A stretch of DNA of 64,000 bases from Gadus chalcogrammus (taxonomy: Eukaryota > Chordata > Actinopteri > Gadiformes > Gadidae), in the NCBI RefSeq assembly GCF_026213295.1, contig NC_079415.1, positions 28,869,681-28,933,680 on the forward strand, read 5' to 3'. The position numbers were made by a program, and so were the translations under genes. The notes beneath the pieces were generated by a model that saw only the letters and a program-made list of their open reading frames with translations, made no database searches and had not been told where the DNA came from. This document shows positions 6,355 through 63,770 of this stretch, one piece after another (within the stretch, counting starts at the first letter, position 1; every line of letters starts with the position of its first letter).

Positions 6355-6660
6355 AAGCCCTGCCTGCATTGCAACGGCAGCTACAGCGACCCAAGCAATT
6401 TGAGTGTGCACATGCTCAAGCACACGGGCAATGGGGTGCTTTCACACAGGGTAACGGGGCGAGATTGAGACCTCTGTCCGGTATTTGTCGAAATTACTGC
6501 TTTTAGTTTTTCTTTTCATCATGATTAAACACTTTCCAGCTTTTGATTCGCTTTGTTTTAATTTTAGTAATTTATGTCTGTGTGATTAAGAACTTATTTC
6601 TCTGACTCTTCTAACAGCAAAATATTAGGAAACGTTCACATCGTTGGTAAATACAAAGGA
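6355..6660 (+). other. 3' end of the zinc-finger gene
   Basis: Begins with the finger-like remnant past the stop (to about 6450) and continues as AT-rich 3' UTR with no clear canonical AATAAA. The block is duplicated at 35073-35390 in unit 2. Confidence 0.45.
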
Positions 6661-33501: not shown

Positions 33502-34008
33502 GTTAGTAATACACATTGCATCCATGCAAGCCAACTGACCTACCAACTGAGAATGTACTCGATTCTAACTGCGCTGGTCCTCTTTTGAAAAGCATCATGA
33601 CCGTCACCCTGCTAAAACACAAGGACTACTATGCAGTTTTATAGTAAAATGATGATCTTCTTCATGACAGGTGTCAGGAATGCTGAATCCGCTCTGATTC
33701 CCAGTATAACTACAGTATTGGTAAAGCAGGTGATCGGAAACCACAGATGACCTGGGTTGTGTCTTTATGACCTCCCCACATCCTTCAAAGGCGGAGACGT
33801 AGCGGTGCCTTCTCAGCTGACGCCTTTGACCCTTGACCCCCCCCCAAGGGGAACAAGGAAAATGCATAATAAACAAAAAGACGTTAGAAAGAAAGAATGT
33901 CAAAATATACTTCTTCCAATACACCAGTGTGTAAAAGTACATGCTGTATCCCTTTGTGCAAATAATTAATTAATACCATTACTTTCTCTCTTTGTTTCCT
34001 CTCTGAAG

Positions 34009-35072
34009 AAGACGTCAATGACATCAGAGACTGCAGCACGCAGCGTGGTGCCACCTCGGAGAGTCTGGGTGTGGACGCCCCTGGCTCCTCCCACATGTCA
34101 AGTCACAGCGGGGAGCTGCGGATCCTGAGCGTTTACGGAAAAGGGGAGGGCCCACTGGCGGTGGATGGTTGGTGGACGGTTTCTCCCAACAATGCCAATA
34201 TGATCGTACACATGAGGACCCGACCAGACGAGAAGCCGTACGGGTGTGACCAATGCACGAAGAGCTTCAGTCAGAAAGGCAACCTGAAAATCCACATGAG
34301 TACGCACTCCGGGGAGAAGCCCTACAGGTGTGACCAATGCGCAAAGCACTACAGTCATAGCTACACCCTCAAGATGCACATGAGGACCCACACCGGTGAG
34401 AAACCCCACAGGTGTGACCAATGCAGGAAGCGCTTCAGTCTAAGTGAACACCTGAAGGGCCACATGAAGACTCACACCTGGGAGAAACCCTACAGCTGTG
34501 ACCATTGCAAAAAGCGCTTCGCTCGGCATGGCGACCTGAACGTCCACATGAGGACTCACTCCGGCGAGAAGCCCTACAAGTGTGACCAATGCACGAAGAG
34601 CTTCAGTCAGAAAGGCCACCTGAAGACCCACATGAGAACTCACTCCGGCGAGAAGCCCTACAAGTGTGACCAATGCACAAAGCACTTCAGTCAGACAAGA
34701 GGCCTGAAGACCCACATGAGGACTCACTCTGGGGTGAAGCCCTACAAGTGTGACCAATGCACGATGCGCTTCAGTCAGAAAGGTACTTTGAAGATCCACA
34801 TGAGGACTCACTCCAAGGAGAAGTCCTACAAGTGTGACCAATGCACAAAGTGCTTCAGTCTGAAAGGCAACCTGAAGACCCACATGAGAACTCACTCCGG
34901 CGAGAAGCCCTACAAGTGTGACCAATGCACAAAGCGCTTCAGTCGGAACAGAGGCCTGAAGATCCACATGAGAACTCACACCGGCGAGAATCCCTACAGG
35001 TGTGACCAATGCACGAAGGGCTTCAGTCTGAAAGGCACCCTGAAGATCCACATGAAGACTCACTCCGGTTAG
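34009..35072 (+). CDS. Unit 2 zinc-finger exon, 10 C2H2 fingers
   Basis: Opens after CTCTGAAG with EDVNDIRDCSTQRGATSES, then SHSGELRILSVYGKGEGPL, and jumps to WWTVSPNNANMIVHMRT: about 130 nt of the unit 1 exon are missing, removing the acidic helix. Ten complete fingers follow, CDQC-x12-H-x3-H, with THSGE or THTGE linkers; finger 4 has CDHC. Finger sequences differ more from unit 1 than the introns do, as expected if DNA specificity is shifting. The TAG stop at 35070-35072 is in the same linker as in unit 1, and a finger remnant with an extra two codons follows it. Open, but the 5' exons are damaged. Confidence 0.8.
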
Positions 35073-39867: not shown

Positions 39868-40889
39868 ATGGCACATCAAAAGGCAAAGTGGCCGATGTTT
39901 GACGGTAGGGCCGAAGAATATGAGCTCTGGGAAGAACGGATGCTGTGTTGTATGCACCGTATCAGGTTAAAAGAGACTATTCTGAACGAGCCTGATGGAC
40001 CGCTGACGGCTGAGGAACGAGCCAAGGATGAGGAGCTGAATGCTGATGCTTACTGCTCGTTGGCGCCATTACTGGATAACGTGAGCTTGGGACGCTTGGG
40101 ACGTTCACGCTGATGGTAACCCACGGTTCAGCGGAGGTGAAACTGGCGGAGTTCAAGGCTAAGCTGCGAAACTTCGAGGCGTTGGAGGATGCTGAGCCAG
40201 TAGCCGAGATGGCGGGAGAAAGGGTGCTGAAGGCTCGCGCAGCACTGAAGAAAAAGAACAGCGGATCTTCGACAGAGATGGCGTGTTGGCGGTGCGGTGA
40301 AAGGGGACATCGAAAAGATGAGTGCACAAGAAAAGTTTGGTGCGGTTCCTGCAAAAGCACAAGCCACAACGCCTGCAGGAAGAAAGAGCGTGCACAAAGG
40401 TCCAGGTGTGCTCGCGCTGAAGATCACAGCGGCGGTGGCAGTAGCAGAGGCAGCGGTGGTAGCAGTGGCGGTCGGGCAGCGAATGGTGGACGGATCGAGG
40501 CGCGGGGACCCGCGATAGACGACTTCACATTCCGGGCAGAGACTGAGGACACCTGCAAGCCAGCGCAGCAGCGGCAGATTGAGGGAAAAGCGCTGATCGT
40601 CGACACTGGCGCGACATCCCACATGCTGAACGACAGGAGCCGGTTCAAGTCCTTCGACAGCACATTCAAGCCGGAGAGCCACAGCATGGAGCTGGCCGAC
40701 GGGAGGCAGACATTCGGGTTGGCGGAAGGCAGAGGAGACGCACAGGTGTGTCTCACCGACAGCGACGGACGAACATGTACAGTGACTCTCAAGAACGCCC
40801 TGTACATCCCTTCGTTCCCACAAGAACTCTTCTCCGTGAAGTGTGCCACTGCGCACGGTGCCAAGGTACTCTTCGAGGAAGGTAACGAT
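39868..40889 (+). pseudogene. Copia gag and protease region
   Basis: Gag starts MAHQKAKWPMFDG and runs to about 40110, where an internal deletion shifts the frame. The next segment (from 40113) has a zinc knuckle CWRCGERGHRKDEC, a second Cys cluster, and the aspartic protease active site VDTGATSHML, then the protease C-terminal fold. A TAA at 40890-40892 stands between protease and integrase in the same frame. Confidence 0.75.
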
Positions 40890-40892
40890 TAA

Positions 40893-42917
40893 CTTGTAGC
40901 GCCTGATGGTGCAAGGTTTAGCATTCAAGTGTGTGACAGAATGTATTACTTGCAAACCAAGTGTGATGACAATGATGTGTGCAATGTTAGCCATGATATT
41001 CAAACCTGGCATGAAATTATGGGGCATTGTAACTATGATGACATACTGAAACTGCAGGATGTAACCCTGGGCATGCACATTAAGGGTGCAAAGCGTAAGC
41101 CTGAAAAGGAATGTCATGTGTGCATAGAGGGGAAGTTTACTCGGACGAGAAACAGAAATGCAACAGACAAGGTGAAAACACCACTGGAGTTGGTAAACAC
41201 TGATCTAGCTGGTCCGGTGACCAATGGTTCAATCGAGGGTTACAGGTACATGCAATCTTTTACAGATGTGTGCACAGGAGTAGTATTCACATACTTCCTC
41301 AAAGCAAAGAGTGATGCCGTACTGGCTACTGAAAAGTTCTTGGCTGACATAGCGCCTTATGGCAGTGTGAAATGCATCCGGTCAGACAACGGGACCGAGT
41401 TCACAAGCAGAGAGTTTAAGACACTCCTGCGAAAGAACAAGATCAGACAAGAGACGTCCTGTCCTTACTCCCCACACCAGAATGGGATAGCTGAGAGGGA
41501 AGGGCGCACTCTCTTTGAGATGGCAAGGTGTAAGCTCATTGACAGCAACTTACCTAAGAGTCTATGGCATTACGCCGTTCAGGAAGCAGCATACACCAGA
41601 AACCGATGCTTTAACAAGCACATAGGCACAACACCATACACAGCACTGACAGGGAAGAAGTGTGATCTAACCAACATGCACAAATTCGGGTCAGAGTGTT
41701 ATGCGTACATACAAGACAAGGGTAAACTAGATCCCAGGTGTGAGAATGGTCTTTTCGTAGGGCACGACAAAGGCAGCCCAGCCTATCTAGTTTACTACCC
41801 CACCAAAGGTAAAGTGCAGAAGCACAGACTGGTCAAGTTTATCACTAAGACCACATGTGACAGCGAGACTCAGACTCAGGACTTAGGACTTGACCCCATT
41901 GTAAATAGTGACAAGACCGACGCACCACAGCCCAGTGCTCAGAGCACAGACGTACAGACTGACAGTCCACAATCCCCAGAGGATGATGGCGAGGAGCACC
42001 AAAGGGTGACGCCACAGGCCCCAAGCAGTGGGAGGTACCCCACTAGAGAGCGTAAGCCCCCAAGTTATCTCTGTGATTATGCTACTGAGGATGATAGTGG
42101 TGATGATGATAGCACACTCACCAGTGTTGACTATTGCTACCGAGCAGTGTGCGGTGTCCCACTGACCTTTAAGCAGGCTATGACATCATCACTAGCAGGT
42201 AAATGGGAGAGGGCAATGGACGAGGAGATGCAGTCATTGGAGGAGAACCAGACCTTTACCCTGACAAAATTGCCAGAGGGCAGAAAGACAGTGGGAGGTA
42301 GGTGGGTGTACTCCATTAAAGAGGGCGGTGATGGGTGTGAGCAGTACAAGGCCAGATTTGTGGCGAAGGGGTATAGCCAGAGAGAGGGAATAGATTATGG
42401 TGAGACATTCTCCACCACGGCAAATATGACCAGTGTGCGTGTAGTCATGCAAAAGGCAGCACAAGAGAACTTGGTACTACACCAAATGGATGTAAAGACG
42501 GCGTATCTACACGCACCCATTGACCGAGAAATTTACATGGACCAACCTGAAGGTTATGAAAAAGGGGAAAACAATCTAGTGTGTAAATTACAGAAGTCAA
42601 TTTATGGTTTGAAACAGTCGGGACGTAACTGGAATGAAATGTTACACAAATGCTTGGTAAATGACAACTTTACTCAGAACCCAGCAGATCATTGTGTGTA
42701 CACAAAAGAGTCAACGCAGGGAGGGAAGGTGATTATTGTCATTTGGGTGGATGATCTCATCATCGCATCAAACAACACAATAAGTCTAGAGCAGGTGAAG
42801 GCAATGCTTTCCACCAGGTTTAAAATGAAGGACCTAGGCAGGCTGAAACACTTTCTAGGCATAGACTTCAGTCAGACTGACGATTGTGTAACCATGTCAC
42901 ATCAAAGGTTAAACTGA
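40893..42917 (+). CDS. Copia pol: integrase and reverse transcriptase
   Basis: Starts in frame with the protease. Order: GAG-pre-integrase zinc region TWHEIMGHCNYDD...CHVC; integrase core with TDLAGP, RSDNGTEF and PHQNGIAERE (the D, D and E residues visible); then RT with YKARFVAKGYSQREG, HQMDVKTAYLHAPI, YGLKQSGRNW and the catalytic WVDDLII. It ends after the RT at TGA 42915; the RNase H expected in copia elements is absent, so the 3' end of pol was deleted. Confidence 0.85.
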   Translation, partial: LVAPDGARFSIQVCDRMYYLQTKCDDNDVCNVSHDIQTWHEIMGHCNYDDILKLQDVTLGMHIKGAKRKPEKECHVCIEGKFTRTRNRNATDKVKTPLELVNTDLAGPVTNGSIEGYRYMQSFTDVCTGVVFTYFLKAKSDAVLATEKFLADIAPYGSVKCIRSDNGTEFTSREFKTLLRKNKIRQETSCPYSPHQNGIAEREGRTLFEMARCKLIDSNLPKSLWHYAVQEAAYTRNRCFNKHIGTTPYTALTGKKCDLTNMHKFGSECYAYIQDKGKLDPRCENGLFVGHDKGSPAYLVYYPTKGKVQKHRLVKFITKTTCDSETQTQDLGLDPIVNSDKTDAPQPSAQSTDVQTDSPQSPEDDGEEHQRVTPQAPSSGRYPTRERKPPSYLCDYATEDDSGDDDSTLTSVDYCYRAVCGVPLTFKQAMTSSLAGKWERAMDEEMQSLEENQTFTLTKLPEGRKTVGGRWVYSIKEGGDGCEQYKARFVAKGYSQREGIDYGETFSTTANMTSVRVVMQKAAQENLVLHQMDVKTAYLHAPIDREIYMDQPEGYEKGENNLVCKLQKSIYGLKQSGRNWNEMLHKCLVNDNFTQNPADHCVYTKESTQGGKVIIVIWVDDLIIASNNTISLEQVKAMLSTRFKMKDLGRLKHFLGIDFSQTDDCVTMSHQRLN

Positions 42918-49707: not shown

Positions 49708-49853
49708 AGACTCCACATCAAAGACAACGAGCATACAGATAATAGCTAAGGCAGCCAAGGATTATTTGGGGATGGAAGGGTTAAAATGGGAGGCTTTGGT
49801 AGCCGAGATAAATACACAGAGTAGTCAGGAGCCGGTGAGAAAACATCATAACC

Positions 49854-52800
49854 ATGGTGAAAATTCTACAGTGGAATGCTAGGAGCTTGGTGGCAAATGG
49901 CCGGGAGTTTAAATATTTTTTAAGTCAAATGAAAGAAAAACCACAAGTAATATGCATTCAAGAAACGTTTTTGAAACCAGTGTTAGATTTTGTTATCTAT
50001 GGATATGTAGGTATAAGAAGAGACAGGAGTGAAGGTGAAGGGGTTGGTGGAGGGTGTGTAACATTTATCAAGCAAGGTATATCATACAGGGTATTAGATA
50101 TTGGAACGGAACAAGAGTATATAGTGGTGGAGGTATGGGAGGGGGGAGAGGAGTTTGTTGTTGTTAATTACTATAATCCATGTCAAAGGTTAGAGAATGA
50201 TAAACTAGTTAGGATTAAAGGTATAGAAAGACACAGGATAATATGGTGTGCAGACTTCAATGCTCATAACACAATGTGGGGAGGGAATCATACAGACACG
50301 AATGGGAAAGTGATTGAAGAGTTCATGGAGGACAATAATCTTGTTTGTTTGAATGATGGGAGGGGGACAAGGATGGATATAAGAACAAGTAATGAGTCAG
50401 TGTTGGATCTGACGTTGGTGTCAGTAAGTTTGGCAGGGATCAGTAACTGGGAGGTTTTGACAGGTAAATCTTTAGGTAGTGACCACTATGTGTTACTTTG
50501 TTCAGTAGGAGGAAGAGGAGAAGTGATTGTTGGAAATGTAATTCAGAAATGGGTGTATAGTAAAGCAGATTGGGGTATATTTAAGTTGGTCAGTGAAGAA
50601 GTTATGGTTTCAGTTGTTACTAGTGGAGATATAGATACAGTAAATAACAGTGTTACATCAGCAATTATTGCTGCAGCAAGTAAATCTATTCCAAGAAGTA
50701 AAAATAGAAGGGATAGGAAGTTAGTTCCTTGGTGGACAGAGGAGTGTTCCAAGGCAGTTAAAGCCCGAAACAAAGCATTTAGGAAAGTCAAAAGAGAGCA
50801 TAATACACAAAGTTTGGTGGAGTATCAGAGGGCACAGGCACTGGTAAAGAGAGTTACAAAGAGAACACAGAGGGCAAGCTGGAGACAGTTTTGTGGTAAG
50901 ATAGGAAGAACAACACCGGTAGGAGAAGTGTGGGGAATGATAAGGAAGATGGGAGGAGATAGAAGAGAGTGGGAGTACCCAGTGATTACGTTAGAGGAGC
51001 AAACTGCTATATGTGATAAAGATAAGGCTGATTTGATGGCCAAATCTTTTGCTAAGGTGCATAGTGTTGATCAGTTGAAAGTGGAAGGGAGAAGGAGAAG
51101 AGAAGTTACTTTGAGTAATTATCCTGATGTGCTAGTTAGGAGAGTAGATACTAGGGAGAAAATAGATGATGGATTTACAATGGCAGAGCTTGTGAGAGCA
51201 ATTAAAAAAGCAAAGCCCTCAGCTCCAGGGGGAGATCAGGTGATCTATGTAATGTTAAAACATCTAGGAGAAAGAGGAATGGAAAAATTGTTAGAACTAT
51301 ATAATAGAGTATGGGTGGAGGGAAAGTTACCAAGTGTATGGAAGGAAGCGGTGGTGATTCCGATTAGGAAACCAGGGAAAGATCCAGGTAAACCTTCTAG
51401 TTATAGGCCAATAGCATTAACGTCTAACATATGTAAAATAATGGAGAGATTGACAGTGACAGAAAGGTTAACGTATGAGCTTGAGAAGAAAGGGTTGTTG
51501 AGTCAAGTGTTGTCAAGTGGTTTCAGAAAAGGGAGACATACAATGGATGTAGTGGTAAGGCTTGAAAATGAGATACGGAAAGCACAGGCAAACAAAGAGT
51601 CAGTGGTGGTAGTGTTTTTTGATATCGAAAAAGCATATGACATGATGTGGAGGGAAGGTTTGTTAATTAAGTTGTATAATATGGGAGTAGGTGGAAGGGT
51701 TTTTAACTGGATAAAGAAATTTTTTTTGACAGAAAAATACAAGTCCGGATTGGGTCTGAATTGTCAAATAAGTATATGGTGGGGAATGGCACTCCCCAAG
51801 GAAGTGTAATTAGTCCTTTATTATTTATAATCATGATAAATGATGTTTTTTCAAAGGTACCAGAGGATATAGGAAGTTCTCTGTTTGCAGACGATGGGGC
51901 TTTGTGGAAAAGGGGAAGAAATGTGATGCATATTATTAGTAAAGTCCAGTCTGCAATTGATGGGGTGACAGAGTGGGGATTTGACTGGGGGTGCAGATTT
52001 TCGGTAGAGAAAACGCAAACTGTATTTTTCACTAGGAAAAGAATTGAGGATGGGATGAAATTGAGGATGTATGGGAAAGAGTTGGAAAGAGTTGGCTCAT
52101 TTAAATATTTGGGAGTTATTTTTGATTCTAGGGTAACGTGGGCAGACCATATTAGGATGATTGAGGATAAATGCAAAAAGGTAATAAATGTGATGAGATG
52201 TTTGACTGGTAGGGATTGGGGAGCGAGCTGTTCAGCTTTAAAGACTATATATGTAGCTATGATTAGATCTGTGTTTGATTATGGGTGTATAGTGTATGGG
52301 TCAGCCGCAGTGTCTCTCTTGAGAAAGCTGGACGTGATTCAGGCTAAGGCATTAAGGGTATGCAGTGGGGCTTTTAAATCATCACCAGTGCCTGCTCTGC
52401 AGGTAGAAATGGGGGAAATGCCACTGGAGTTGAGAAGGAAACATTTGATGGGGAACTATTGGGCTAATCTGCGAGGGCACAGTGAGTCTCACCCCACAAA
52501 AGGTGTGTTGAAAGAGTGCTGGGTTTATGGGAAGTGTGAGAGGAATCATTTTGGTCGGGTGGGGAATGATATAGCGAAAGAGTTTGGTGTGGGTGAATTG
52601 AAGCTTAGTCCAACAGTGGTATATCCATTAATGCCGCCATGGAGGATGGTGTGGCCAGAGGTGGACTGGTTTGTGTTGGGTATAAAGAAGAGAGAGAGAG
52701 AACAGAAAGACCTGGCTAGTGTTTTTAATATTCATCTTCTTATAGAGCACAGTGAGTATGTTCATGTTTTTACAGATGGTGCCAAACAACCTGAGACAGG

Positions 52801-53538
52801 AGCGACAGGGTTTGGAGTAGTTGTTCCATCAAAAAGAATAGAGTTTAATAGAAGAACATCAGATAATTTAAGCGTTTATACAGTGGAGATGTTGGGGGTG
52901 CTGGTCGCTTTAAAATGGGTGGAATCAAGTTCAGTTGGAAAAATTGTGATCTGTACAGATTCAGCATCAGTTTTGGCAAGTATGAGGTCTTTTTATTCAA
53001 GTAGTCGCCAAGGTTTGTTGTATGAAGTTCTACAGTCGATTACGAGAATCGTTCAGCAGGGGAGGGTTCCAGCTCATGTTCCAGCTCATGTAGGGGTGAA
53101 GGGAAATGAGAAAGCCGATAAGATGGCGAAGAAGGCATTGGAGAAGGAAAAAGTAGAAATGAATATCAGTTTAAGTAAGGCAGAAGTTAAAAGCCTGATA
53201 TGGGGAAAAGTTAACAAGATGTGGCAAGACAAATGGGACAGTGAGGAGAAAGGGAGATATTTATATAATATTCAAAAAAGTGTTAATGATAAAATAAGGT
53301 ATAGTGGTCAGAGGAAGGATGAACAAATTTTGATTAGGTTAAGGTTGGGGCACAGTGCACTAAATAAAACAATGAATTTGATAGGAAAACACCCCACTGG
53401 ATTATGTGAGGGGTGCCAGGTAGAGGAGACAGTGGAACATGTTTTAATGAACTGTAGTGGTTATGGGATGGAGAGGGAAAGTATGAAAAATCAATTGAGA
53501 GAATTGGGTATACAGGAGTATACTTTGGAAAGTATTTT
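49854..53538 (+). pseudogene. ORF2 of the I-type LINE: endonuclease, RT, RNase H
   Basis: Starts MVKILQWNARSLVANG. Endonuclease motifs: CIQETFL, GGGCVTFIK, CADFNAHN, SDHYVLL. RT motifs: SYRPIALTSNICKIMER, FFDIEKAYDMMWRE, then a one-base deletion near 51740 shifts the frame to 51761-53566 with NGTPQGSVISPLLF and LFADDGAL. RNase H: FTDGAKQPETGATG, VEMLGVLVALKWV, CTDSASVL and a late Asp. A Cys/His motif CEGCQVEETVEHVLMNC ends the protein. The final codons are displaced to 63552-63635 by the Merlin-type insertion. Only one frameshift separates it from a full ORF. Confidence 0.85.
53531..53538. repeat. Target-site duplication AGTATTTT (left)
   Basis: Repeated at 63552-63559. Eight base pairs, within LINE codons Ser-Ile-Leu. 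Confidence 0.9.
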
Positions 53539-54705
53539 GGTAACACTTTATAATAAGGTGCCATAATAAATAGCAAACTAGTCATTACCTAACCCTTTGT
53601 TAATATTTGTTAATTGTTACTAAAATATCTATTTGGCACAAGTTAATAGTTTTTCCATCATTAATTAAATATTAGTTGTTTGCATACAATTTGTATGTTA
53701 ATGTTTTAACAAATAGAAAACAATCTATTAACTAATATTGTATTAATATTTATTAATAGTTAACTAAATGTATTTTTGGCACTAATTAACAGTTATTTCT
53801 TACATTATTTAAATGTTAAATGTTTATTTACAAACTATATGTTGATATAAAAGTTAATGACATATTATTATTTAACTAATTGTTATTAAACTGTGCTTCT
53901 GCCTATCCCAATATGAACCACTCCTCATCGGACTCTTACAATGAAGTTGGTTAAGCTTAATTAATATATGAGTAATATATAACTATCAGTATGGGGGACC
54001 CTTATAATAAAGTTGGTTAAGCTTAATTAATATATGAGTAATATATAACTATCAGTATGGGGGACCCTTATAATAAAGTTGGTTAAGCTTAATTAATATA
54101 TTAGTAATATATAACTATCAGTATGGGGAACCCTTATAATGAAGTTGGTTAAGCTTAATTAATATATTAGTAATATATAACTATCAGTATGGGGGACCCT
54201 TATAATAAAGTTGGTTAAGCTTAATTAATATATTAGTAATATATAACTATCAGTATGGGGGACCCTTATAATAAAGTTGGTTAAGCTTAATTAATATATT
54301 AGTAATATATAACTATCAGTATAGGGGACCCTTATAATCAAGTTGGTTAAGCTTAATTAATATATTAGTAATATATAACTATCAGTATAGGGGACCCTCA
54401 TAATAAAGTTGGTTAAGCTTAATTAATATATTAGTAATATATAACTATCAGTATGGGGGACCCTTATAATCAAGTTGGTTAAGCTTAATGAATATATTAG
54501 TAATATATAACTATTAGTATTGGGGACCCTTATAATAAAGTTGGAACAGTAATTATTAATCATTTACAAATATTTATTATAACATGTATTAACGATAGCA
54601 AATATTTTAACTCTCACACTGGAAATGAATGATCTCAGCACACACTGTTGGGAAGGGGGATGAAAATACTTTATTTATAACTCTCTAACAAAGGACTCTC
54701 AAAGA
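53539..54705. repeat. Left terminal inverted repeat with 66-bp array
   Basis: About 400 bp of AT-rich end sequence with TTAACTA/TTAATA motifs, then about nine 66-bp units (53936-54540) with GTTGGTTAAGCTTAATTAA starting at 53946, 54012, 54078, 54144 and so on, then about 160 bp down to AACAAAGGACTCTC. All three segments recur inverted at 62195-63551. Confidence 0.9.
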
Positions 54706-55031
54706 GCTCACAAATAGCTTTTTGTTTTCTCCTGGAACACTGACCACTGATAGTTAACCTGATGGTCTACTGGAACACTGATCATTAAACTGATCAAAAG
54801 ATGATCAAACTAGAATGCCAACAGAATGTATAAAATGGTATATCAAATAAACAGAGAAAGAGAGAGGGGTTCAACCAGAGCGTGAGAAAAAGAGAGAAAG
54901 ACAGTGAGACAGAGCACAAGAAAGTGAGGGAAAGACAGAGTGAGAGACAGGCAATATTTCTTAACCACACTAGAAAAAAACAACACGAACGGGTAAAAAA
55001 ATAATAATTATGCTCTCTTTGCATACGGGAT
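54706..55031. other. Purine-rich spacer downstream of the CCDC106-like gene
   Basis: GAGAGAAAGA-type runs at 54850-54950. No gene seen. On the minus strand this lies just after the CCDC106-like stop codon and should hold its 3' UTR. Confidence 0.4.
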
Positions 55032-58000
55032 TCATTTGCATTGACTTTTTAAGTCATCTATTTTTGTCTGAACCTGAGCATCACCTTTAATGTAGTTTTC
55101 GCATAAATTTGCTACATCTTTCAGCTTTCCCTGTTTGGTTTTATCGAGGAGCTTTGTGAACTCGGCAGGTGACGCTGTTGCCAGCTCTGCAATGCTTGCC
55201 GTGGACCTGACTGTGAGTTCGTTCACCCCTGCGTATGCACAGGAAGCCGACAATTTCAAGCCCCGATTGTATGCTTTCAGGACCTTCTTGTATCTTCTTA
55301 TCACTTCAAAAGGGCCACGGGCTGCAAGGAGCAAATCATAAAGAAAAACTACATTATGGACGGTACATAAAAATGTGTGTTCACAACAGTGCTATGAGTT
55401 GAAATGCTTATTGTATTGTTATGTGGCAGCATACAAGACAAGACAGAATTCCACCTAGCTCCTTTAAATAGGTCCACTTTATGTTAGGGTAGAATTAAAG
55501 GGATACGTCACCATTTGGGGAATTACACCAGTTTCCACTTTCCCTCGAGTTAAGTAGCCTAATTGAGATTGACCTTTCTCCAGTTCATTCAGCCGTTCTG
55601 AGTCTGACGGTAGCATTTTTGGCTCCAGCCAAGCATAGATCATTGAATCAGATTAGACCATTATCTCGCCCATTAGCATCTTGCTCAAACGTAACTAAGA
55701 AATCTGATATTTTCCCTGTGTAATACTTCAGTAATTACAAAGTGTACCAACAGAGAATGAACATGGTGATCAATACCGTGGTTTGCACTACTTGACTTAA
55801 AGGGATTATGCGGAGTGAATCAACCTGTAGCCCTGTTGTTTCGCATTGCCAAGTGCTGTCGATAGGCATGAGAACGACAGAATTCCATGCACGGTAGACC
55901 AAATAGCGAAACGGCAGCCAACGCTAACTACTGAGGGCATGTGAGTTTCGTTTTCCTATGCCCGCATCTGGTCTACGTTGTAACTATTGCTGTCGTTCTG
56001 ATACCTATTGACAGCACCCGGCAGCCTCAAACAACAGGGCTACGGGTTGATTCACTCCTGATAATCCTTTTAACACATGGAGGGACTATTTTCAGATGTG
56101 TCAGCAAATGTCCTAATTTACTATGCTGGAATGAGAGTATAGTTCCATGTTTTATAGGAATAGAAAATCGCCACATTTCATTATCCACTGTCTTTGTACT
56201 CTTTGCAACTACAGAAGGATCAAGTTTTAATTAGAATTTTTCTTTGAATTCTTAGTCACTTTTGAGCAAGATACTAACAGGCGAGATGCTAATGGGCTAA
56301 TCTGATTCAATAATCTATGCTAGGCTGGAGCTTAAAGTACTACTGTCAGACCAAAGTTACTGACCAAGGTAGAGCAACATAATACATTACAATGGGAGTA
56401 GTCTCGCAAAGCCAGACCAAACTACAGCAAGTAGAATGGTCTGGAACCACGCTATTTAGAGCCGTCTATCCGTGGGGAAACTGGGCTGGCCTGTTTTTAT
56501 TTCTTTAAACCAATCATAATCGTAGGGGCGGGGCTAACCCCGGGAAGCAGCAGCGGTGCGCAATACGGGAAAGCCAGAAACCGGAAGGGGAGGAGTAGCG
56601 GTGGAATCTGACGCTAGCGCAATAGACGCTGTCCATTTCCGCTCAGCCAGACTACAATGGGAGTAAACGTGAATAGTTCCAGTCTGCATAAGTGGGAGTG
56701 TCACATAACGTCACAATGTAAACTTTTCAATTAACTTCTGTATGAGGTATGAGGGCTCGACTCTGGGATTTCCCCCCCTCCCCCTTCTGAAAATAGAACA
56801 CAGAATTTAACAGACATTTGTGCTTCTCGCTTCACTTTTAACCTCTCTGGTCAAACTCAGAGAAAGGCTGAATGACCTGGAGAAAGGTCAATCTCAAATG
56901 TTGAAGACAAGGGGAGGTGGAAAATGAATTTGTTCCATAAAGGATAGATTCAACGTTTTGCTGGAGTTTTACCTCTTTTGCGGACATCAGTCACTTTGTG
57001 GTGCTTCCTGGCCTTCTTTATTTTGTTCTTTGTCTTTGAAAGTCTGAGTTTTCCCTTGCCCTTTCGTTTCATCTTCTCATCTGAGGAGGAGGAGGAAGAA
57101 CAGGAGGAGGACCGGCTCATTGAAGACAATGATGAGCAGGAGGCAGTGTCTTCCTCTGAAGATTGTTCTTCTCTGGGAGCTTTAGACAGGTCTAGACAGT
57201 ACAAAAAAACAAAGATTAAACAGATATTGCTGATGCCTTATACAGAATACCATTTCTTCCTTTTTGTTCCAACAAAGGTAATATTTTGTGTAAAGTCAAA
57301 ATAACCCTAGACCTGGGATGTGTTACTATTAGGTGGTTACTATTAGGTGGTTAAGTGTCGAACCAGGGTAAGTAAAGCTAGAGGTAGTGGTAAATATGAT
57401 AATAGAAGAGTCTGGAGTCTCCATTCTCTTAACTACAGAAAGCCAGCAGGCTACTATAAGGAGGTTTACCACTTCCTCTAACTTAACTAACCAGGTGTAC
57501 CACTTAACCTCCTACTTGGAATAGGTATATGTTTGACTGACACTGTATACATTTTTGTGTCATACACCGAAAATGTAGGCTTGTTGAACCTTACATGCCA
57601 GTTGTTTGCGAAGAGCATCCCTCTCCTTTATCACTTTCTGGAGTTTCTTATCTTGAGACCGCTCTCTCATCTTGGCCTTTTGGAGGAGATTCTTCACCGT
57701 TGGTGACCGGTCACCTGTCAAAAAACGTCATTTCAGCATAGTTGTACAGCTAACACACAGCAATTTAATAATTTTTTTTAACACAGCCTGTTTATGTTAT
57801 AGCAAATTCGGTAACAAATACCACGAACATTGTCTATCTAGCCATAACTTTTGAAAGTAAGAGATTTTGAAAGTATTGTGCATCAAAGTTACTGTTAGGA
57901 GCAAAATATTGCCGTTCTCATGAATAGCTTAGAGTATTTTGGACATTTAAGTAGTTACTCAGCTGTAAAGTAGCCACTAAGCTGTAATGTAATTCATGCA

Positions 58001-59161
58001 GAATAATAATTTTTATACACTATGACAAGACCTGAGGTGCGTTCAAGTTCAGCGAACATAGGCGAACGTTCGCAACGAACGCGTTGACCATAAACAATTA
58101 ATTTTGAACGATTTTTGAACACCGTTCTAAACAAACTGTAAACGAAAAAAATGGATACGAAGGCCATGGTATTAGCGGCAGCCTCCATGTTAATGGAAGA
58201 GTTTACAGAAGAGGGTTTGCAAGTGGTCGACCTCGTTGAAAGCCTACTGCAGACAACCAGTACGGAAAATTCAAGAATAGAGGGCTACGTCACCGAAGTT
58301 GTACCCACTTACTGCGATATAACGTTCAAATCGCATTTTAGGATGCAAAAGACAACAGTTGAAGTAAGGGTGTAGATAGGCTATATGAAACGTTTTATCT
58401 ATTGCTTTCAGTGTAGGAAAGGAGTAAATGATTTCAATATAGTTTAGTTTAATGCCATGGCAACGAATGTCACGTAGCCGAAGAGAGCACCGCGATCCAT
58501 CTCTGTTTGTGGAGAACTACCTCTTCAGACAGTTTGCCTATGTTCGTAAACGTTTGCTTGCTTATGTTCGTTTAACGGAAAATGTTTAAAATCGTTCGCG
58601 AACGTTCGCCCATGTTTGCGATTCTGAAAGTGAACGCACCTCAGGTTATTTGAATAGGCTCAGGCTTTAATAGGCCTACGGTCAGAGTTCGACACTCCAT
58701 TTGTTCCGACCCGTGGTCGTAACAAAAGTTGTAAGAATTACATAATACCTAGTCAAAAATAACCACATGTACTCCGACTGTGTAATAAATATGTATTAAT
58801 AATAATAAAAACAAATCTAGGTCTCGTACCAGTGCATGACATGCTTCGGCCAATGAATCGATTTTCTCACCACGCGGCGGACTATGGCGGTGCGCCATAG
58901 TCTCGTCAATGTGTGGGAAAGGGTGCCAGTGTTAATGCTAACCAGTAAGCATAGCCTAATTTTATGAACATAATGCTAGGTCATAACCTGTTCGAACTTA
59001 CCTTTCTTCGGTTCAGAGACATGGGGGGTATCTGTGGAGTCATCACCACTGTCAAAGTTGATGTCACATGTTTGAGCGGAGGCGGAGGGGAGCATTTTGT
59101 CGTCCTTCGCTGCTGTTGTGTTCTTTCTTAAAACTTTCCCAGATCTGGTGCCTGCCGACAT
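55032..59161 (-). CDS. CCDC106-like protein, four exons, intact
   Basis: Minus-strand exons 59161-59002, 57714-57595, 57191-56973 and 55321-55032. All introns are GT-AG and all three are phase 1; total 789 nt, 262 residues plus stop. Exon 1: Ser/Thr/Asp-rich (NFDSGDDSTDTPHVSEP). Exon 2: a coiled coil, KNLLQKAKMRERSQDKKLQK...RDALRKQ. Exon 3: acidic and poly-Ser, then very basic (KMKRKGKGKLRLSKTKNKIK). Exon 4: RRYKKVLKAYNRGLKLSASC, a helix-turn-helix-like ASIAELATASPAEF, then a helical tail. The order coiled coil, basic Ser-rich region and RY-x2-VLKA...IAEL-x-x-A-x-P domain fits CCDC106 proteins (nuclear; human CCDC106 binds p53) and is close to its size of about 280 residues. Family assignment from memory. 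The gene lies wholly inside the transposon. Confidence 0.7.
55797..56072. repeat. Palindromic element, arms about 85 bp
   Basis: TAAAGGGATTATGCGGAGTG at the left is answered by CACTCCTGATAATCCTTTTA at the right; the arms share GTAGCCCTGTTGTTT inverted. A hairpin-forming MITE lying inside a larger inverted repeat. Confidence 0.75.
56399..56654. mobile_element. Short TIR element, 256 bp, 9-bp target copy
   Basis: Starts TAGTCTCGC and ends GCCAGACTA, flanked by CAATGGGAG at 56390-56398 and 56655-56663. Non-coding. A 9-bp target copy with a TAGTCT end could be hAT- or Merlin-related; not decided. Confidence 0.65.
57192..57594. other. Intron 2 of the CCDC106-like gene
   Basis: No other feature. 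AACCACCTAATAG and TAGGTGGTTA words recur around 57330-57355. Confidence 0.5.
58031..58647. mobile_element. Harbinger-type element within intron 1
   Basis: Starts ACCTGAGGTGCGTTCA and ends in the reverse complement; GCGAACGTTCGC-type palindromes lie inside both ends. Carries a plus-strand coding fragment (58151-58375). Target copy unclear. It lies in intron 1 of the CCDC106-like gene and leaves the exons intact. Confidence 0.65.
58151..58375 (+). pseudogene. HARBI1-like transposase N-terminal fragment
   Basis: MDTKAMVLAAASMLMEEF... then GYVTEVVPTYCDITFKSHFR, which resembles the first part of PIF/Harbinger transposases (the F-x-x-HFR motif before the catalytic domain). The DDE domain is missing, so the element depends on others. 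Confidence 0.5.
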
Positions 59162-59490
59162 TACGTACACTTCCAAATAAACTAGCGAGCCTGGCTTGCG
59201 CAATCAAAAGAGCATCAATGTAGGGTGACCAGACGTCCTCTTTTTCCCGGACATGTCCTCTTTTCGAGACCTAAAAAATGCGTCCGGCAGGGATTCCAAA
59301 AACGTCCGGTATTTTGCCTCGTCGCAAAAAAAAAAAAATATATATATTATTGTTATTATTATCTTTTTTTTTTTTTATGCCTCGTCGCATATTTGTGTTT
59401 CTGGGTCTTTCACATAACCTACTAGTTATTACCATTGTATATGTCTATGGTTATTACGGCCTTCCAAGTTCTGGAAATGGTATCTCCCTT
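59162..59490. promoter_or_regulatory. Divergent intergenic region of the Merlin-type element
   Basis: Lies between the start of the CCDC106-like gene (minus) and the transposase (plus), so it must hold promoters for one or both. It contains TAGGGTGACCAGACGTCC from 59221, the end of a common vertebrate hAT-type repeat, and an A-rich run at 59328. No TATA box is evident. Confidence 0.4.
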
Positions 59491-59628
59491 ACGTTCCACC
59501 TTCTTGCGCGAGCTGACTGTAGAGAGAGTCTGTCATTGGGCGACCGATCTCATGTGCTCGTTGAGAAGGTGCCGTGTATAGACGGAATGAAACCCCTACT
59601 GAAGTCAGTAGGCTTACGATACAAACTG
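59491..59628 (+). pseudogene. Transposase exon A, damaged
   Basis: Upstream exon ending at the donor GTAAGT (59629). Words expected before the zinc-like Trp-x-Cys region are readable only by changing frame twice: LRELTVERVCHWATDL, then VEKVPCIDGMKPLLKS, then AYDTNW. The last one joins exon B exactly as a split TG|G codon. Two small indels (about 59560 and 59611) are the simplest explanation. Confidence 0.5.
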
Positions 59629-59734
59629 GTAAGTTTGTATCGTGGAATGGTAAGTTGGTCTTCTTCTTAAGTTTAATGTCAAATTTACTTTTGACTTTTT
59701 TGTTAAAGAAATATATTTATATTTTAATCCGCAG

Positions 59735-60195
59735 GATGTGCAGAGGGGGCTTCAATCACAGGAACAGAGTGAAGCAGTCTATAAGGCACAAGTCAATTTT
59801 CAGCCAGTCCAAGTTATCTCTTTTTGATTGGTCACGGTTCATTTACAGGTAAGATTATGACACAATAATGTAGGCTAAGGATAGATGAGTGGAGTGTTTT
59901 CATTGTGCGCCTGCATGTAGCCTCTGGTAATGTTATTTTAACGTATAGCTTGAGAATGAAAGGAAAGGTGAGAATGAAGTGAACGGCTCTTCTGCCAAAG
60001 TGCACCACATACACCAGCAGCCAAAATGTGACATTAAAATAGCCTGTAGCCAAATAAACACTGTCATGCTCTTACACAATTTCAAATGTGATGTGAAGCC
60101 TTGCAGTGTGATGTGAAGCCCTACGCATACCGGCTCTGTTACTAATGTGTTACACGTGTCCTTTCTATTTTCTGAATATTATTACAGTCTATGTA

Positions 60196-60286
<91 letters not shown>

Positions 60287-62021
60287 AAGGGGGGGGGGGG
60301 TCATTTGAAGAAATGCTAATTATTTGTGATGCTTTGTTTCAGGTTTTCACAAGGACTGCGTTTAAGACAGATTGACCTGATGATGGATGAGATATCAAGG
60401 AGTCCGACCTCTCTTTCAAAGATGGCAAAGAAGCTACGAGAAGTATGTATTTGGGCACTTAATAGAAGAAGGAGAAGGAAGGGACAGCGATTGGGTGGAA
60501 GACACGAGTATGTGGTGATCGACGAAAGCCACTTCAGACATAAGAGAAAGGTGAGAAAATATTGTTTGAATTTTCATAACATGTACATAAAATATCAGAG
60601 TAACTACCATAATTAAAATATTCTGGAAAATTAAGTGTTAGACATCACTGACAACAACACACATTGATAATAGTAAAGTGCATACACACGCATTGTGCAC
60701 CCATTCCCCTCTGCATTCGGCCAAGTGTCATTCTTCACATTCAGCCCCAACCTACACACACTCATTTACCCACATGGGCCCACTACTCTACCCCGACAGC
60801 TCGGCCCCTAGCTCTGCCCATCATCAAAAAAAAACTCCACTGATGTATTCTGTATATTGTAAGGCCCCCCCCGCCTCCCCCCTAACGCCTGCTACCACCC
60901 CCCACTCCACACACCCCATAGCCCATCACCAGGAAGCCCCCCGCCCCTCCTGCCTGCAAACCCCACCCAGCTCTTGCCCATTCGTCATACCACTTCATCA
61001 CCTTATGCCTAGTACACAACATCATACGAGTTCAGCCTCTGATTTGGAGAGTGCCGACACCCCTGCTAACTCTCCATTGTTAAAACCACATGTCTGGTAT
61101 TTTTATAATTGGGAGTCTCGAGTTCGTGCATAGGGCTGATCTGTAACTTCGTTATACACACCACTGGCACAGGTAGACCCTCAGATTACATGGTGACGTC
61201 ATGTTTAATCCCTTTCAAAGTGTTAACATTAGATCAGGGGCAAATTCAACCGATGCACCGGTTTTCGCAAATGAATTACCGATTGATTTACGAGGCAAGG
61301 TCTTTATCTGTGATGTCCAAGCCGACCCTACAATCCCTCAATAATCCCTCCCCAATGTCCAACATGCACTTTACATCTTTACGAACTCAATTTCATTGCA
61401 TTTCTTACACCAGTAACTATGTGCATGTGACAATAAAACGTTGTTGTATCCTTGTGTAATGCATCCCTTATACACAGAATGTGTTATGCTTTGCTGCGAC
61501 TTGCTTGCCTTCATGATCATTTTCTCTTTTGTTTTGTTTTAATATAGTATGGGAGAGGCAGAGCGGCTGGGGGGTGGAAAAGAAAAAAGTGGGTTTTTGG
61601 CATGTTGGGCGTGAAGAAAAGTGATGGGAAGAGTCAGAGACCAATCCTGCGCCTGGTGGACAGGCGAACCAGACAAGAACTTGTCCCTTTGCTATGCCGA
61701 CATGTAAAAATGGGCTCTTACATCATTAGTGATGAATGGCGGTCATACCGCGTACTTAATGATCTGGGGTTCAGACACTTGACTGTAAACCACAGTATGT
61801 GGTATATGGATCCTATTACAGGAAACCATACACAGCACATTGAACGTGCTTGGCGAACTGTTAAGGAGCAGGTCTGGAGACAAAGGGGCAACCGGACAGA
61901 AGAACTGTTGTCAGACCACCTAAATGTGATTGAGCGGCATGAATGGATTGCAAAAAAGTACCACAGTGGTCCATTGGGTAGGATTTTGCATGACATAGCA
62001 GAGATGTACAAACATCTCTGA
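59735..62021 (+). CDS. Merlin / IS1595-like DDE transposase, exons B to D
   Basis: Exons 59735-59848, 60343-60550 and 61548-62021 with matching phases give about 264 residues. Exon B: CRGGFNHRNRVKQSIRHKS then SKLSLFDWSRFIY, the substrate-like block typical of IS1595 relatives. Exon C: helical DNA-binding part, ending VVIDESHFRHKRK with the first catalytic Asp. Exon D: YGRGRAAGGWKRKKWVFGML, then IISDEWRSYRVL (second Asp), NHSMWYMDPITGNHTQ and HIERAWRTVKEQVW (catalytic Glu). It should cut and rejoin the element's GGTAAC ends with an 8-bp stagger. These exons are open; the damage is upstream in exon A. Confidence 0.8.
60195..60300. repeat. (GT)n microsatellite followed by poly-G
   Basis: About 40 GT units with one GC interruption, then GGAA and a run of about 11 G. 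Lies in the transposase intron shortly before the exon C acceptor. Slippage here could affect splicing. Confidence 0.9.
60551..61547 (+). other. Transposase intron 3 without further genes
   Basis: A C-rich stretch at 60690-61000 and unique sequence after. The reading frames here are composition effects. A short AATAAA at about 61431 is not at a gene end. Confidence 0.5.
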
Positions 62022-62194
62022 AACACATACACAGTCTTTCATTAAAGGCACACCAGGTAACATTTTTAGGTTAATTTAACAGTTTCTTAGTCACTGATGA
62101 TTAAATGGCTAATTACCGGGTGAATGGAGCGTCTCTCACCCATCTTTGCCTTGTGTGCCTTTAAGAAACCTATTAAATCTTAAAAAAAAGCTAT

Positions 62195-63551
62195 TGGAGA
62201 GTTCTTTGTTAGAGTTATAAATAAAATATTTCCATCCCCCTTCCCAACAGTGTGTGCTGAGATCATTCATTTCCAGTGTGAAAGTGAAAATATTTGCTAT
62301 CGTTAATAAATGTTAAATAAATATTTGCAAATAATTAATAATTACTATTACAACTTTATTATAAGGGTCCCCAATACTAATAGTTATATAATACTAATAT
62401 ATTAATTAAGCTTAACCAACTTTATTATAAGGGTCCCCTATACTGATAGTTATATATTACTAATATATTAATTACGCTTAACCAACTTTATTATAAGGGT
62501 CCCCCATACTGATAGTTATATATTACTAATATATTAATTAAGCTTTACCAACTTTATTATAAGGGTCCCCCATACTGATAGTTATATATTACTAATATAT
62601 TAATTAAGCTTAACCAACTTTATTATAAGGGTCCCCTATACTGATAGTTATATATTACTAATATATGAATTAAGCTTAACCAACTTGATTATAAGGGTCC
62701 CCAATACTAATAGTTATATATTACTAATATATTAATTAAGCTTAACCAACTTTATTATAAGGGTCCCCCATACTGATAGTTATATATTACTAATATATTA
62801 ATTAAGCTTAACCAACTTTATTATAAGGGTCCCCCATACTGATAGTTATATATTACTAATATATTAATTAAGCTTAACCAACTTTATTATAAGGGTCCCC
62901 ATACTGATAGTTATATATTACTAATATATTAATTAAGCTTAACCAACTTTATTATAAGGGTCCCCCATACTGATAGTTATATATTACTAATATATTAATT
63001 AAGCTTAACCAACTTTATTATAAGGGTCCCCATACTGATAGTTATATATTACTAATATATTAATTAAGCTTAACCAACTTGATTATAAGGGTCCCCCATA
63101 CTGATAGTTATATATTACTCATATATTAATTAAGCTTAACCAACTTCATTGTAAGAGTCCTATGAGGAGTGGTTCATATTGGGATAGGCAGAAGCACAGT
63201 TTAATAACAATTAGTTAAATAATAATATTTCATTAACTTTTACATTAACATATAGTTTGTAAATAAACATTTAACATTTAAATAATGTAAGAAATAACTG
63301 TTAATTAGTGCCAAAAATACATTTAGTTAACTATTAATAAATATTAATACAATATTAGTTAATAGATTGTTTTCTATTTGTTAAAACATTAACATACAGA
63401 TTGTATGCAAACAACTAATATTTAATTAATGATGGAAAAACTATTAACTTGTGCCAAATAGATATTTTAGTAACAATTAACAAATATTAACAAAGAATTA
63501 GGTAATGACTAGTTTGCTATTTATTATGGCACCTTATTATAAAGTGTTACC
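62195..63551. repeat. Right terminal inverted repeat with 66-bp array
   Basis: Inverted copy of 53539-54705. The array (about 62350-63150) has 12-13 units against about nine on the left; several units have a 1-bp shorter GGGTCCCC run. The last 400 bp match the left end almost base for base. Confidence 0.9.
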
Positions 63552-63770
63552 AGTATTTTAAGTTTAATGAAGAGGAATTGTATAAAAGTATTGTTGGGCT
63601 TTTTGAGAGAAACAGGGTTATATGGTAGGATATAGAGTAGAAAGAAGGTGTGAATGAGTGAGTGTTTGGATATTTTTGTTTTTTGATTCATTAACTGGAT
63701 CAGAAGAGGGCGGTAATGCACCAAGTTGTGGATGCCAACCGCCGATAAACCCCAAGAAGAAGAAGAAGAA
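63552..63770 (+). mobile_element. Displaced 3' end of the I-type LINE
   Basis: Begins with the target copy and continues the ORF2 frame for 27 codons (ending ...FLRETGLYGRI and TAG at 63633-63635). Then a 3' UTR with GGATGCCAACCGCCGATAAA and AAG repeats. Confidence 0.8.

What the first reader, a model, noticed from the sequence alone, without database searches (positions are those of the whole stretch)
53539..63551. A 10-kb Merlin-class transposon that carries an intact CCDC106-like gene
Seen: perfect 8-bp target copies, long inverted ends, an IS1595-like DDE transposase on one strand and a four-exon, phase-perfect, fully open CCDC106-like gene on the other, all between the ends. Known: Merlin elements normally carry only a transposase. 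Inferred: the second protein, which has a basic region and a helix-turn-helix-like domain, is either an accessory DNA-binding factor of the transposon or a host gene captured as cargo. If general, this would explain many CCDC106-like paralogs in fish genomes as transposon-borne.
Basis: partly seen in the sequence, partly recalled or inferred. Interest (0 to 1): 0.92.

Follow-up and report, generated by a model that had tools for sequence, protein, structure and literature searches.

The report
Transposon family carrying a CCDC106-like gene
A group of jumping DNA elements carries, beside its jumping enzyme, a relative of the vertebrate protein CCDC106, which suggests that many CCDC106-like genes in this genome belong to transposons and act in transposition.

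Summary
Window 53539-63551 is a Merlin (IS1595/ISXO2-like) transposon with 8-bp target copies, long inverted ends (~98% identical), a DDE transposase and, on the other strand, a four-exon gene matching PF15794 (CCDC106, E 1.1e-26). The refuting test failed to refute: 8 of 8 complete copies found in the host genome carry both genes (40 of 196 candidates were scored).

The window copy is damaged: its first transposase exon is replaced by unrelated DNA, and its second gene stops about 8 codons early.

The pairing recurs. A genome search found 38 distant CCDC106-like exons (28-49% identity). I probed six: four lie head-to-head with Merlin transposases (three with catalytic domains, one with 5' exons only); one showed none in ~4.5 kb; one, the host-type CCDC106 gene, showed none. 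Four transposases compared are 59-67% identical, so the pairing is old.

Best reading: a two-gene Merlin lineage whose second protein is a nuclear DNA-binding helper. That function is inferred. The papers searched show no report of the pairing; Repbase could not be searched.

The parts
53531..53538 (.). left target-site copy AGTATTTT
63552..63559 (.). right target-site copy AGTATTTT
53539..53929 (+). left outer terminal inverted repeat; tip GGTAACACTTTATAATAAGGTGCC
63161..63551 (-). right outer terminal inverted repeat; holds two diverged copies of a 143-bp direct repeat (63242-63526)
53930..54544 (.). left 66-bp tandem array, 9.3 units; most units carry an inverted copy of the tip motif CCTTATNATAAAGT (up to 1 mismatch)
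62351..63160 (.). right 66-bp tandem array, 12.3 units, same motif
54545..54700 (+). inner part of the left inverted arm
62197..62350 (-). inner part of the right inverted arm
59002..59161 (-). CCDC106-like gene, exon 1 (start codon 59161-59159)
   Evidence: 99.4-100% over the searched stretch in the other 7 complete copies
57595..57714 (-). CCDC106-like gene, exon 2 (coiled-coil region by inspection)
56973..57191 (-). CCDC106-like gene, exon 3: serine-rich acidic stretch, then basic NLS-like stretch (by inspection)
   Evidence: compare PMC6423756
55032..55321 (-). CCDC106-like gene, exon 4: conserved C-terminal domain; TGA at 55034-55032 comes earlier than in other copies
59735..59848 (+). 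Merlin transposase, second exon of the family gene (the first exon is missing in this copy)
60343..60550 (+). Merlin transposase, third exon; holds VIDES (first catalytic Asp, assignment recalled)
61548..62021 (+). Merlin transposase, fourth exon; holds SDEW and IERAW; stop at the end
59196..59645 (.). block that, among the copies fetched, only this one has; it stands in place of the 5' part of the transposase gene, first exon included
58038..58650 (.). nested inverted-repeat insertion in intron 1, present in all 8 complete copies, so older than the burst; its Harbinger-like look is recalled, no Pfam match

Best explanation
This is one copy of a two-gene lineage of Merlin (IS1595/ISXO2-like) DNA transposons. 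SHOWN: both genes lie between the same inverted ends, back to back with divergent starts (483 bp apart in copy C12), and occur together in every complete copy found; three distant families in the same genome with full transposase matches, and a fourth with 5' transposase exons only, have the same arrangement. INFERRED: the divergent starts share a promoter region; the transposase (zinc-ribbon-like N-terminus, DDE core) cuts and pastes the element and makes 8-bp target copies; the CCDC106-like protein pairs through its coiled coil, enters the nucleus through its basic stretch, and its helical C-terminal domain binds the repeated subterminal sequence (66-bp units with a copy of the tip motif), helping to assemble transposase on the very long ends or controlling its activity. 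This window copy lacks the first transposase exon, so it would have to be moved by other copies.
For: 8 of 8 complete copies found hold all four CCDC106 exons and the three transposase exons searched. Perfect 8-bp target copies also at C15, C71 and C12 (C12 lies in satellite DNA, so weaker), 7 of 8 bases at C14. Second gene without internal stop or frameshift in 7 of 9 copies assembled; transposase open in 4 of 9. Other families: fam2 (C12:20005494-20020528, 40-base identical inverted tips whose first 18 bases equal ours), fam3 (L052, E=1.7e-79), fam4 (L056, E=6e-68), fam5 (L054, 5' exons only). Their C-terminal domains match PF15794 at 108-122 bits and the fam2-fam4 transposases match PF12762 at 63-73 bits. 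Transposases are 58.8-66.9% identical; C-terminal domains of the five element-linked loci are 33-50% identical and still open, which suggests selection. Motif: 23 hits in the window, all in this element, 0.12 expected; 10 of 2000 random arms have a hit.
Against: No experiment or expression data. The DNA-binding step rests on inspection; the only fold prediction is poor (pLDDT 50.7) and the search of solved structures gave no match better than E=0.13. No dN/dS was computed. One search scored only 40 of 196 candidates, so more copies of this family exist unseen. Only 6 of 38 distant loci were probed, not at random; C7:3391769 showed no transposase in ~4.5 kb upstream (in fam2 the gap is about 7 kb, so this does not settle it), and fam5 shows no recognised catalytic domain in 5.95 kb. 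Target copies do not match at C22a, C79 or fam2. C119 has a broken transposase with only exons 1-2 of the second gene in 20 kb. The motif match is modest once the repeats are counted as one event.
Confidence: 0.62

Rival explanations
1. Cargo: a host CCDC106 gene with its introns was captured once by a Merlin ancestor and rides along without helping transposition.
For: The genome has a separate host-type CCDC106 locus (C11:5765869, 178 bits to PF15794, no transposase hit in ~4.5 kb upstream), and the intron before the C-terminal domain is in phase 1 there as in the transposons (read by eye), so the genes share an intron-bearing ancestor.
Against: A useless passenger should not stay open through divergence that leaves transposases 59-67% and C-terminal domains 33-50% identical across families, nor be in 8 of 8 complete copies found.
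Confidence: 0.2
2. The second protein acts on the host rather than on the ends: like human CCDC106 it lowers p53, so that cells with transposition breaks survive and pass the copies on.
For: PMC6423756 (passages, one of them from the abstract) reports that human CCDC106 binds p53 and promotes its degradation, needing CK2 sites next to a nuclear localization signal; exon 3 here has a serine-rich acidic stretch followed by basic residues, as, by eye, do fam2 and fam3.
Against: No p53-binding surface was identified; the part that the searches recognise best is the C-terminal domain; the resemblance of exon 3 is compositional.
Confidence: 0.13
3. Chance: a host gene or a separate insertion merely lies between the ends in this copy.
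For: Nested insertions do exist in the element.
Against: Same gene, order and strands in 8 of 8 complete copies found, at up to 7 different sites, and in other families.
Confidence: 0.02

Closest known systems
Merlin superfamily (eukaryotic relatives of IS1016/IS1595)
   Same: PF12762 DDE transposase, terminal GG, 8-bp target copies, short MITE derivatives; definition from PMC8101967 (passages, and part 1 of section 10)
   Different: Carries a second, spliced gene on the other strand; element 10 kb; inverted arms of 1.16-1.36 kb against the 24-462 bp given in PMC8101967. That paper mentions one family, by context a Symbiodinium one, with an overlapping opposite-strand ORF judged to be there by chance.
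CCDC106 (PF15794), which promotes p53 degradation in human cells (PMC6423756, passages)
   Same: Matches over profile 7-211 of 220; by inspection the same order of coiled-coil region, serine-rich acidic stretch, basic stretch, C-terminal domain
   Different: Transposon-borne; the element-linked C-terminal domains are 30-40% identical to the host-type one in this genome
Kolobok Kol0 lineage with KolX (PMC9587614, passages)
   Same: A DDE transposon with a second protein related to a vertebrate domain (P2X7 ballast); the authors propose that P2X7 gained it from KolX and that Nanor is a domesticated KolX
   Different: Another superfamily, TTAA targets, another second protein
Harbinger elements with a Myb-like second protein (recalled, from no call)
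   Same: Two-gene DNA transposon whose second product is a DNA-binding helper
   Different: Different transposase and helper families

Membership tests
Merlin superfamily | DDE_Tnp_IS1595 domain above the curated cut-off | tested here: met
   57.0 bits against 27 for the window's last exon; 62.3 for the composite family transposase
Merlin superfamily | DDE catalytic residues | tested here: met
   IDES, SDEW, IERAW aligned in four families; their assignment as catalytic is recalled
Merlin superfamily | 8- or 9-bp target copies | tested here: met
   perfect 8 bp at the window copy, C15, C71, C12 and the short C1; 7 of 8 at C14; none at C22a and C79; C9 not readable (N)
Merlin superfamily | inverted repeats beginning GG | tested here: met
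   GGTAACAC at both ends
Merlin superfamily | inverted repeats of 24-462 bp (reported range, not a definition) | tested here: not met
   455 bp before the first gap, but the arms continue to 1.16-1.36 kb
IS1595 family (bacterial relatives) | a single transposase gene (as stated in PMC8101967) | tested here: not met
   second gene in 8 of 8 complete copies found; so it is filed as a variant of Merlin, not as a member of the bacterial family
IS1595-type N-terminal zinc domain | recognised zinc-ribbon domain | tested here: inconclusive
   CxxC and later C residues visible; PF13408 stays below its cut-off
CCDC106 (PF15794) | profile match above cut-off over most of its length | tested here: met
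   94.5 bits against 30.2, profile 7-211 of 220
CCDC106 (PF15794) | p53 binding and destabilisation | not testable with these tools
   needs a cell assay

The most novel reading that the evidence does not exclude
The vertebrate CCDC106 gene, a p53 regulator in human cells, is itself a domesticated Merlin helper protein (as is proposed for Nanor and part of P2X7 with KolX), and the transposon version still manages the DNA-damage response, or the transposon ends, during transposition; most CCDC106-like paralogs in fish are transposon genes.
Probability: 0.25. Interest if true: 0.92.

Novelty: new variant of a known kind. Interest (0 to 1): 0.78.

Why it matters
Merlin elements are, as far as I recall, described as one-gene transposons (PMC8101967 says so of their bacterial relatives). 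A lineage with a conserved second protein offers a testable helper-dependent transposition system in what looks like a fish genome. It also places the family of a human cancer-related gene among transposon proteins, raises the question whether CCDC106 was domesticated or captured, and warns that annotated CCDC106-like genes in such genomes may be mobile elements rather than host genes.

Tried and rejected
Protein-database search for relatives of the second protein: not possible, the database is switched off and the query was not sent. Viral contigs: no relative of either protein. Solved structures: only two weak matches, E 0.13 and 0.99, to unrelated proteins. Fold prediction of the C-terminal domain alone: helical but pLDDT 50.7, so not searched further. 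Rfam: nothing in the window. Within-family selection: the seven gap-free second-gene copies differ at only six sites, too few; no dN/dS was computed. Genome-wide transposase searches (protein and PF12762) and the PF15794 search did not complete, nor was the empty-site search. Literature, from listings unless a passage is named: CCDC106 with transposon, 4 papers, none on this subject by title; with fish, 20 papers, 19 listed, none on this subject by title; with teleost or Merlin, none; the full protein name with transposable, none; the 106-like name, none. Merlin searches: 7 papers, 48 with 20 listed, 33 with 20 listed, 1; none names a second Merlin protein in title or abstract start. Repbase could not be searched.

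Rows set aside before counts: one search listed 50 places (40 of 196 candidates scored, so a lower bound); 49 of the 50 lie in DNA that I fetched or in the window, C8:18292063 does not. I counted as complete the 8 copies with both ends and of full size. C1 (2.9 kb) and C22c (2.1 kb) have both ends and no gene; of 10 MITE places fetched (0.3-0.7 kb) 9 show both ends and none has a gene hit. C7, C119, C13, C22b, C86, C7b and C9b are one-ended, cut or fragments; C12b is a fragment beside fam2. C79 shares one flank with C15 (99.4%), so the 8 stand for at most 7 clearly different sites. Of the 53 rows I assigned 15 to the window's own family and 38 to distant loci.
Full report
What is in the window. 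53539-63551 is a 10,013-bp DNA transposon. It is flanked by perfect 8-bp copies AGTATTTT and has identical 24-base tips GGTAACACTTTATAATAAGGTGCC and arms that agree at 1132 of 1158 ungapped positions. It sits near the end of a reverse transcriptase/RNase H frame; joining the flanks at the target site keeps that frame open to a stop 28 codons further on. The arms hold a 66-bp tandem array, 9.3 and 12.3 units. Most units contain an inverted copy of the tip motif CCTTATNATAAAGT: with up to one mismatch, all 23 hits in 64 kb fall in this element, two at the tips and 21 in the arrays. Counting the array as one event, 10 of 2000 random arms had such a hit, so the match is suggestive, not strong.

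The two genes. On the plus strand are three exons of a Merlin transposase (PF12762). On the minus strand is a four-exon gene of 262 codons with GT-AG introns, all in phase 1, matching PF15794 CCDC106 at E=1.1e-26 over profile 7-211 of 220. By inspection it has a coiled-coil stretch, a serine-rich acidic stretch, a basic stretch and a C-terminal domain. PMC6423756 (passages) places CK2 sites S130 and S147 beside a nuclear localization signal at 151-164 in human CCDC106, a similar order of parts.

Damage in this copy. Nine of nine other copies aligned have a first transposase exon; with it the family protein has 324 residues (composite). In the window copy this stretch is replaced by other DNA, with no hit over 150 bp in the other fetched copies. 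The window's second gene stops at codon 263, where 7 of 7 other copies inspected have a leucine codon; in 6 of these the same frame would run 8 codons further (C9, one of them, has a frameshift earlier), and C71 differs downstream. The distant relatives have a Leu/Ile-Pro motif in the piece that is lost here.

The outer end (392 bp) found 50 places in the 630-Mb host genome, with 40 of 196 candidates scored, so this is a lower bound. Eight copies have both ends and full size; all 8 have the four CCDC106 exons and the three transposase exons searched, in the same order and on opposite strands, mostly at 98-100% identity, in C79 and C9 with the last transposase exon split by an insertion. No fetched copy has an open transposase without the second gene; C119 has a broken transposase with only exons 1-2 of the second gene in 20 kb, C13 only the last transposase exon, C22b only exons 2-4 of the second gene. 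Two short two-ended copies (C1, C22c) and 10 MITE places have neither gene. Perfect target copies support separate jumps for the window copy, C15, C71 and C12 (C12 lies in satellite repeats), 7 of 8 bases for C14; C22a and C79 do not match, and C9 runs into Ns. The second gene is free of stops and frameshifts in 7 of 9 copies assembled, though C14 lacks a GT donor after exon 3; the transposase is open in 4 of 9.

Beyond this family. A search with the C-terminal domain found 53 matches, 86 of 86 candidates scored; 15 belong to the window's family and 38 are distant, 28-49% identical. Fetching was limited, so I probed six, not at random: five from groups that looked alike in the list and one single locus. 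(1) fam2, C12:20005494-20020528: second gene (35% in the domain) and, head-to-head, a transposase (38-66% by exon) between inverted tips identical over 40 bases, the first 18 equal to ours; its flanks are not a target copy. (2) fam3, L052: second gene (exons 2 and 4 by tblastn, 1 and 3 by eye) and a transposase, E=1.7e-79, start codons about 270 bp apart. (3) fam4, L056: second gene (exons 2 and 4) and a transposase, E=6e-68. (4) fam5, L054: second gene (exon 4) and two 5' transposase exons (best E about 1e-5 and 2e-6), no catalytic domain recognised in 5.95 kb. (5) C7:3391769: no transposase hit in ~4.5 kb upstream. (6) C11:5765869: C-terminal domain at 178 bits to PF15794 against 60-122 for the other six, no transposase hit in ~4.5 kb upstream; I take it to be the host CCDC106 gene. 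The other 32 were not probed. The four transposases compared are 58.8-66.9% identical with IDES, SDEW and IERAW kept.

Interpretation. Structure and co-occurrence are shown, and target copies at several sites show that the unit has moved. The age of the pairing follows from the divergence. Function is inferred: a nuclear, dimeric, DNA-binding helper acting on the long repeated ends is the most likely role; a role against p53, or pure cargo, is possible. The direction (captured host gene or domesticated transposon gene) is open; the phase-1 intron before the last domain, read by eye in the loci, says only that all descend from one intron-bearing gene. KolX in Kolobok (PMC9587614, passages) is a precedent for a transposon's second protein becoming a host protein.

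Limits. All comparison is within one genome. No paper in the listings and passages seen links CCDC106 with Merlin, but only open-licence PMC papers were searched, some lists were cut at 20, and Repbase was not held. Checking changed facts of detail only; the odds are as first set.

Noticed in passing
49839-53566 and 63552-63650: A non-LTR retrotransposon (reverse transcriptase and RNase H) interrupted near the end of its second frame by the transposon.
   Followed up: partly
4921-6354 and 33966-35072: Two similar C2H2 zinc-finger coding arrays with 84-bp repeats on the same strand (fingers by eye).
   Followed up: no
40080-42917: Two adjoining open frames that look, by eye, like Copia gag-pol.
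   Followed up: no
L015+L016 (C71) and L021+L022 (C9): Both copies hold an extra terminal repeat near one end, and the bases next to it are reverse complements of each other, as if a nested end had been carried along.
   Followed up: partly
L009 (C15), 5152-5322 and 6483-6653: This copy holds exon 1 of the second gene and the intron-1 insertion twice, a tandem duplication of about 1.3 kb.
   Followed up: no
L044 and L045 (C1:1653400 and C1:1903500): Two MITE copies with reverse-complementary, non-matching flanks, as expected of one locus duplicated in inverted orientation.
   Followed up: no
L011+L012 (C79) and L021+L022 (C9): Both copies carry an insertion of about 0.9 kb at the same place in the last transposase exon, so a copy with a broken transposase seems to have multiplied.
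   Followed up: partly
L035 501-1143: A fragment of the window's family that ends exactly at the tip of a fam2 element, as if fam2 had inserted into it.
   Followed up: partly
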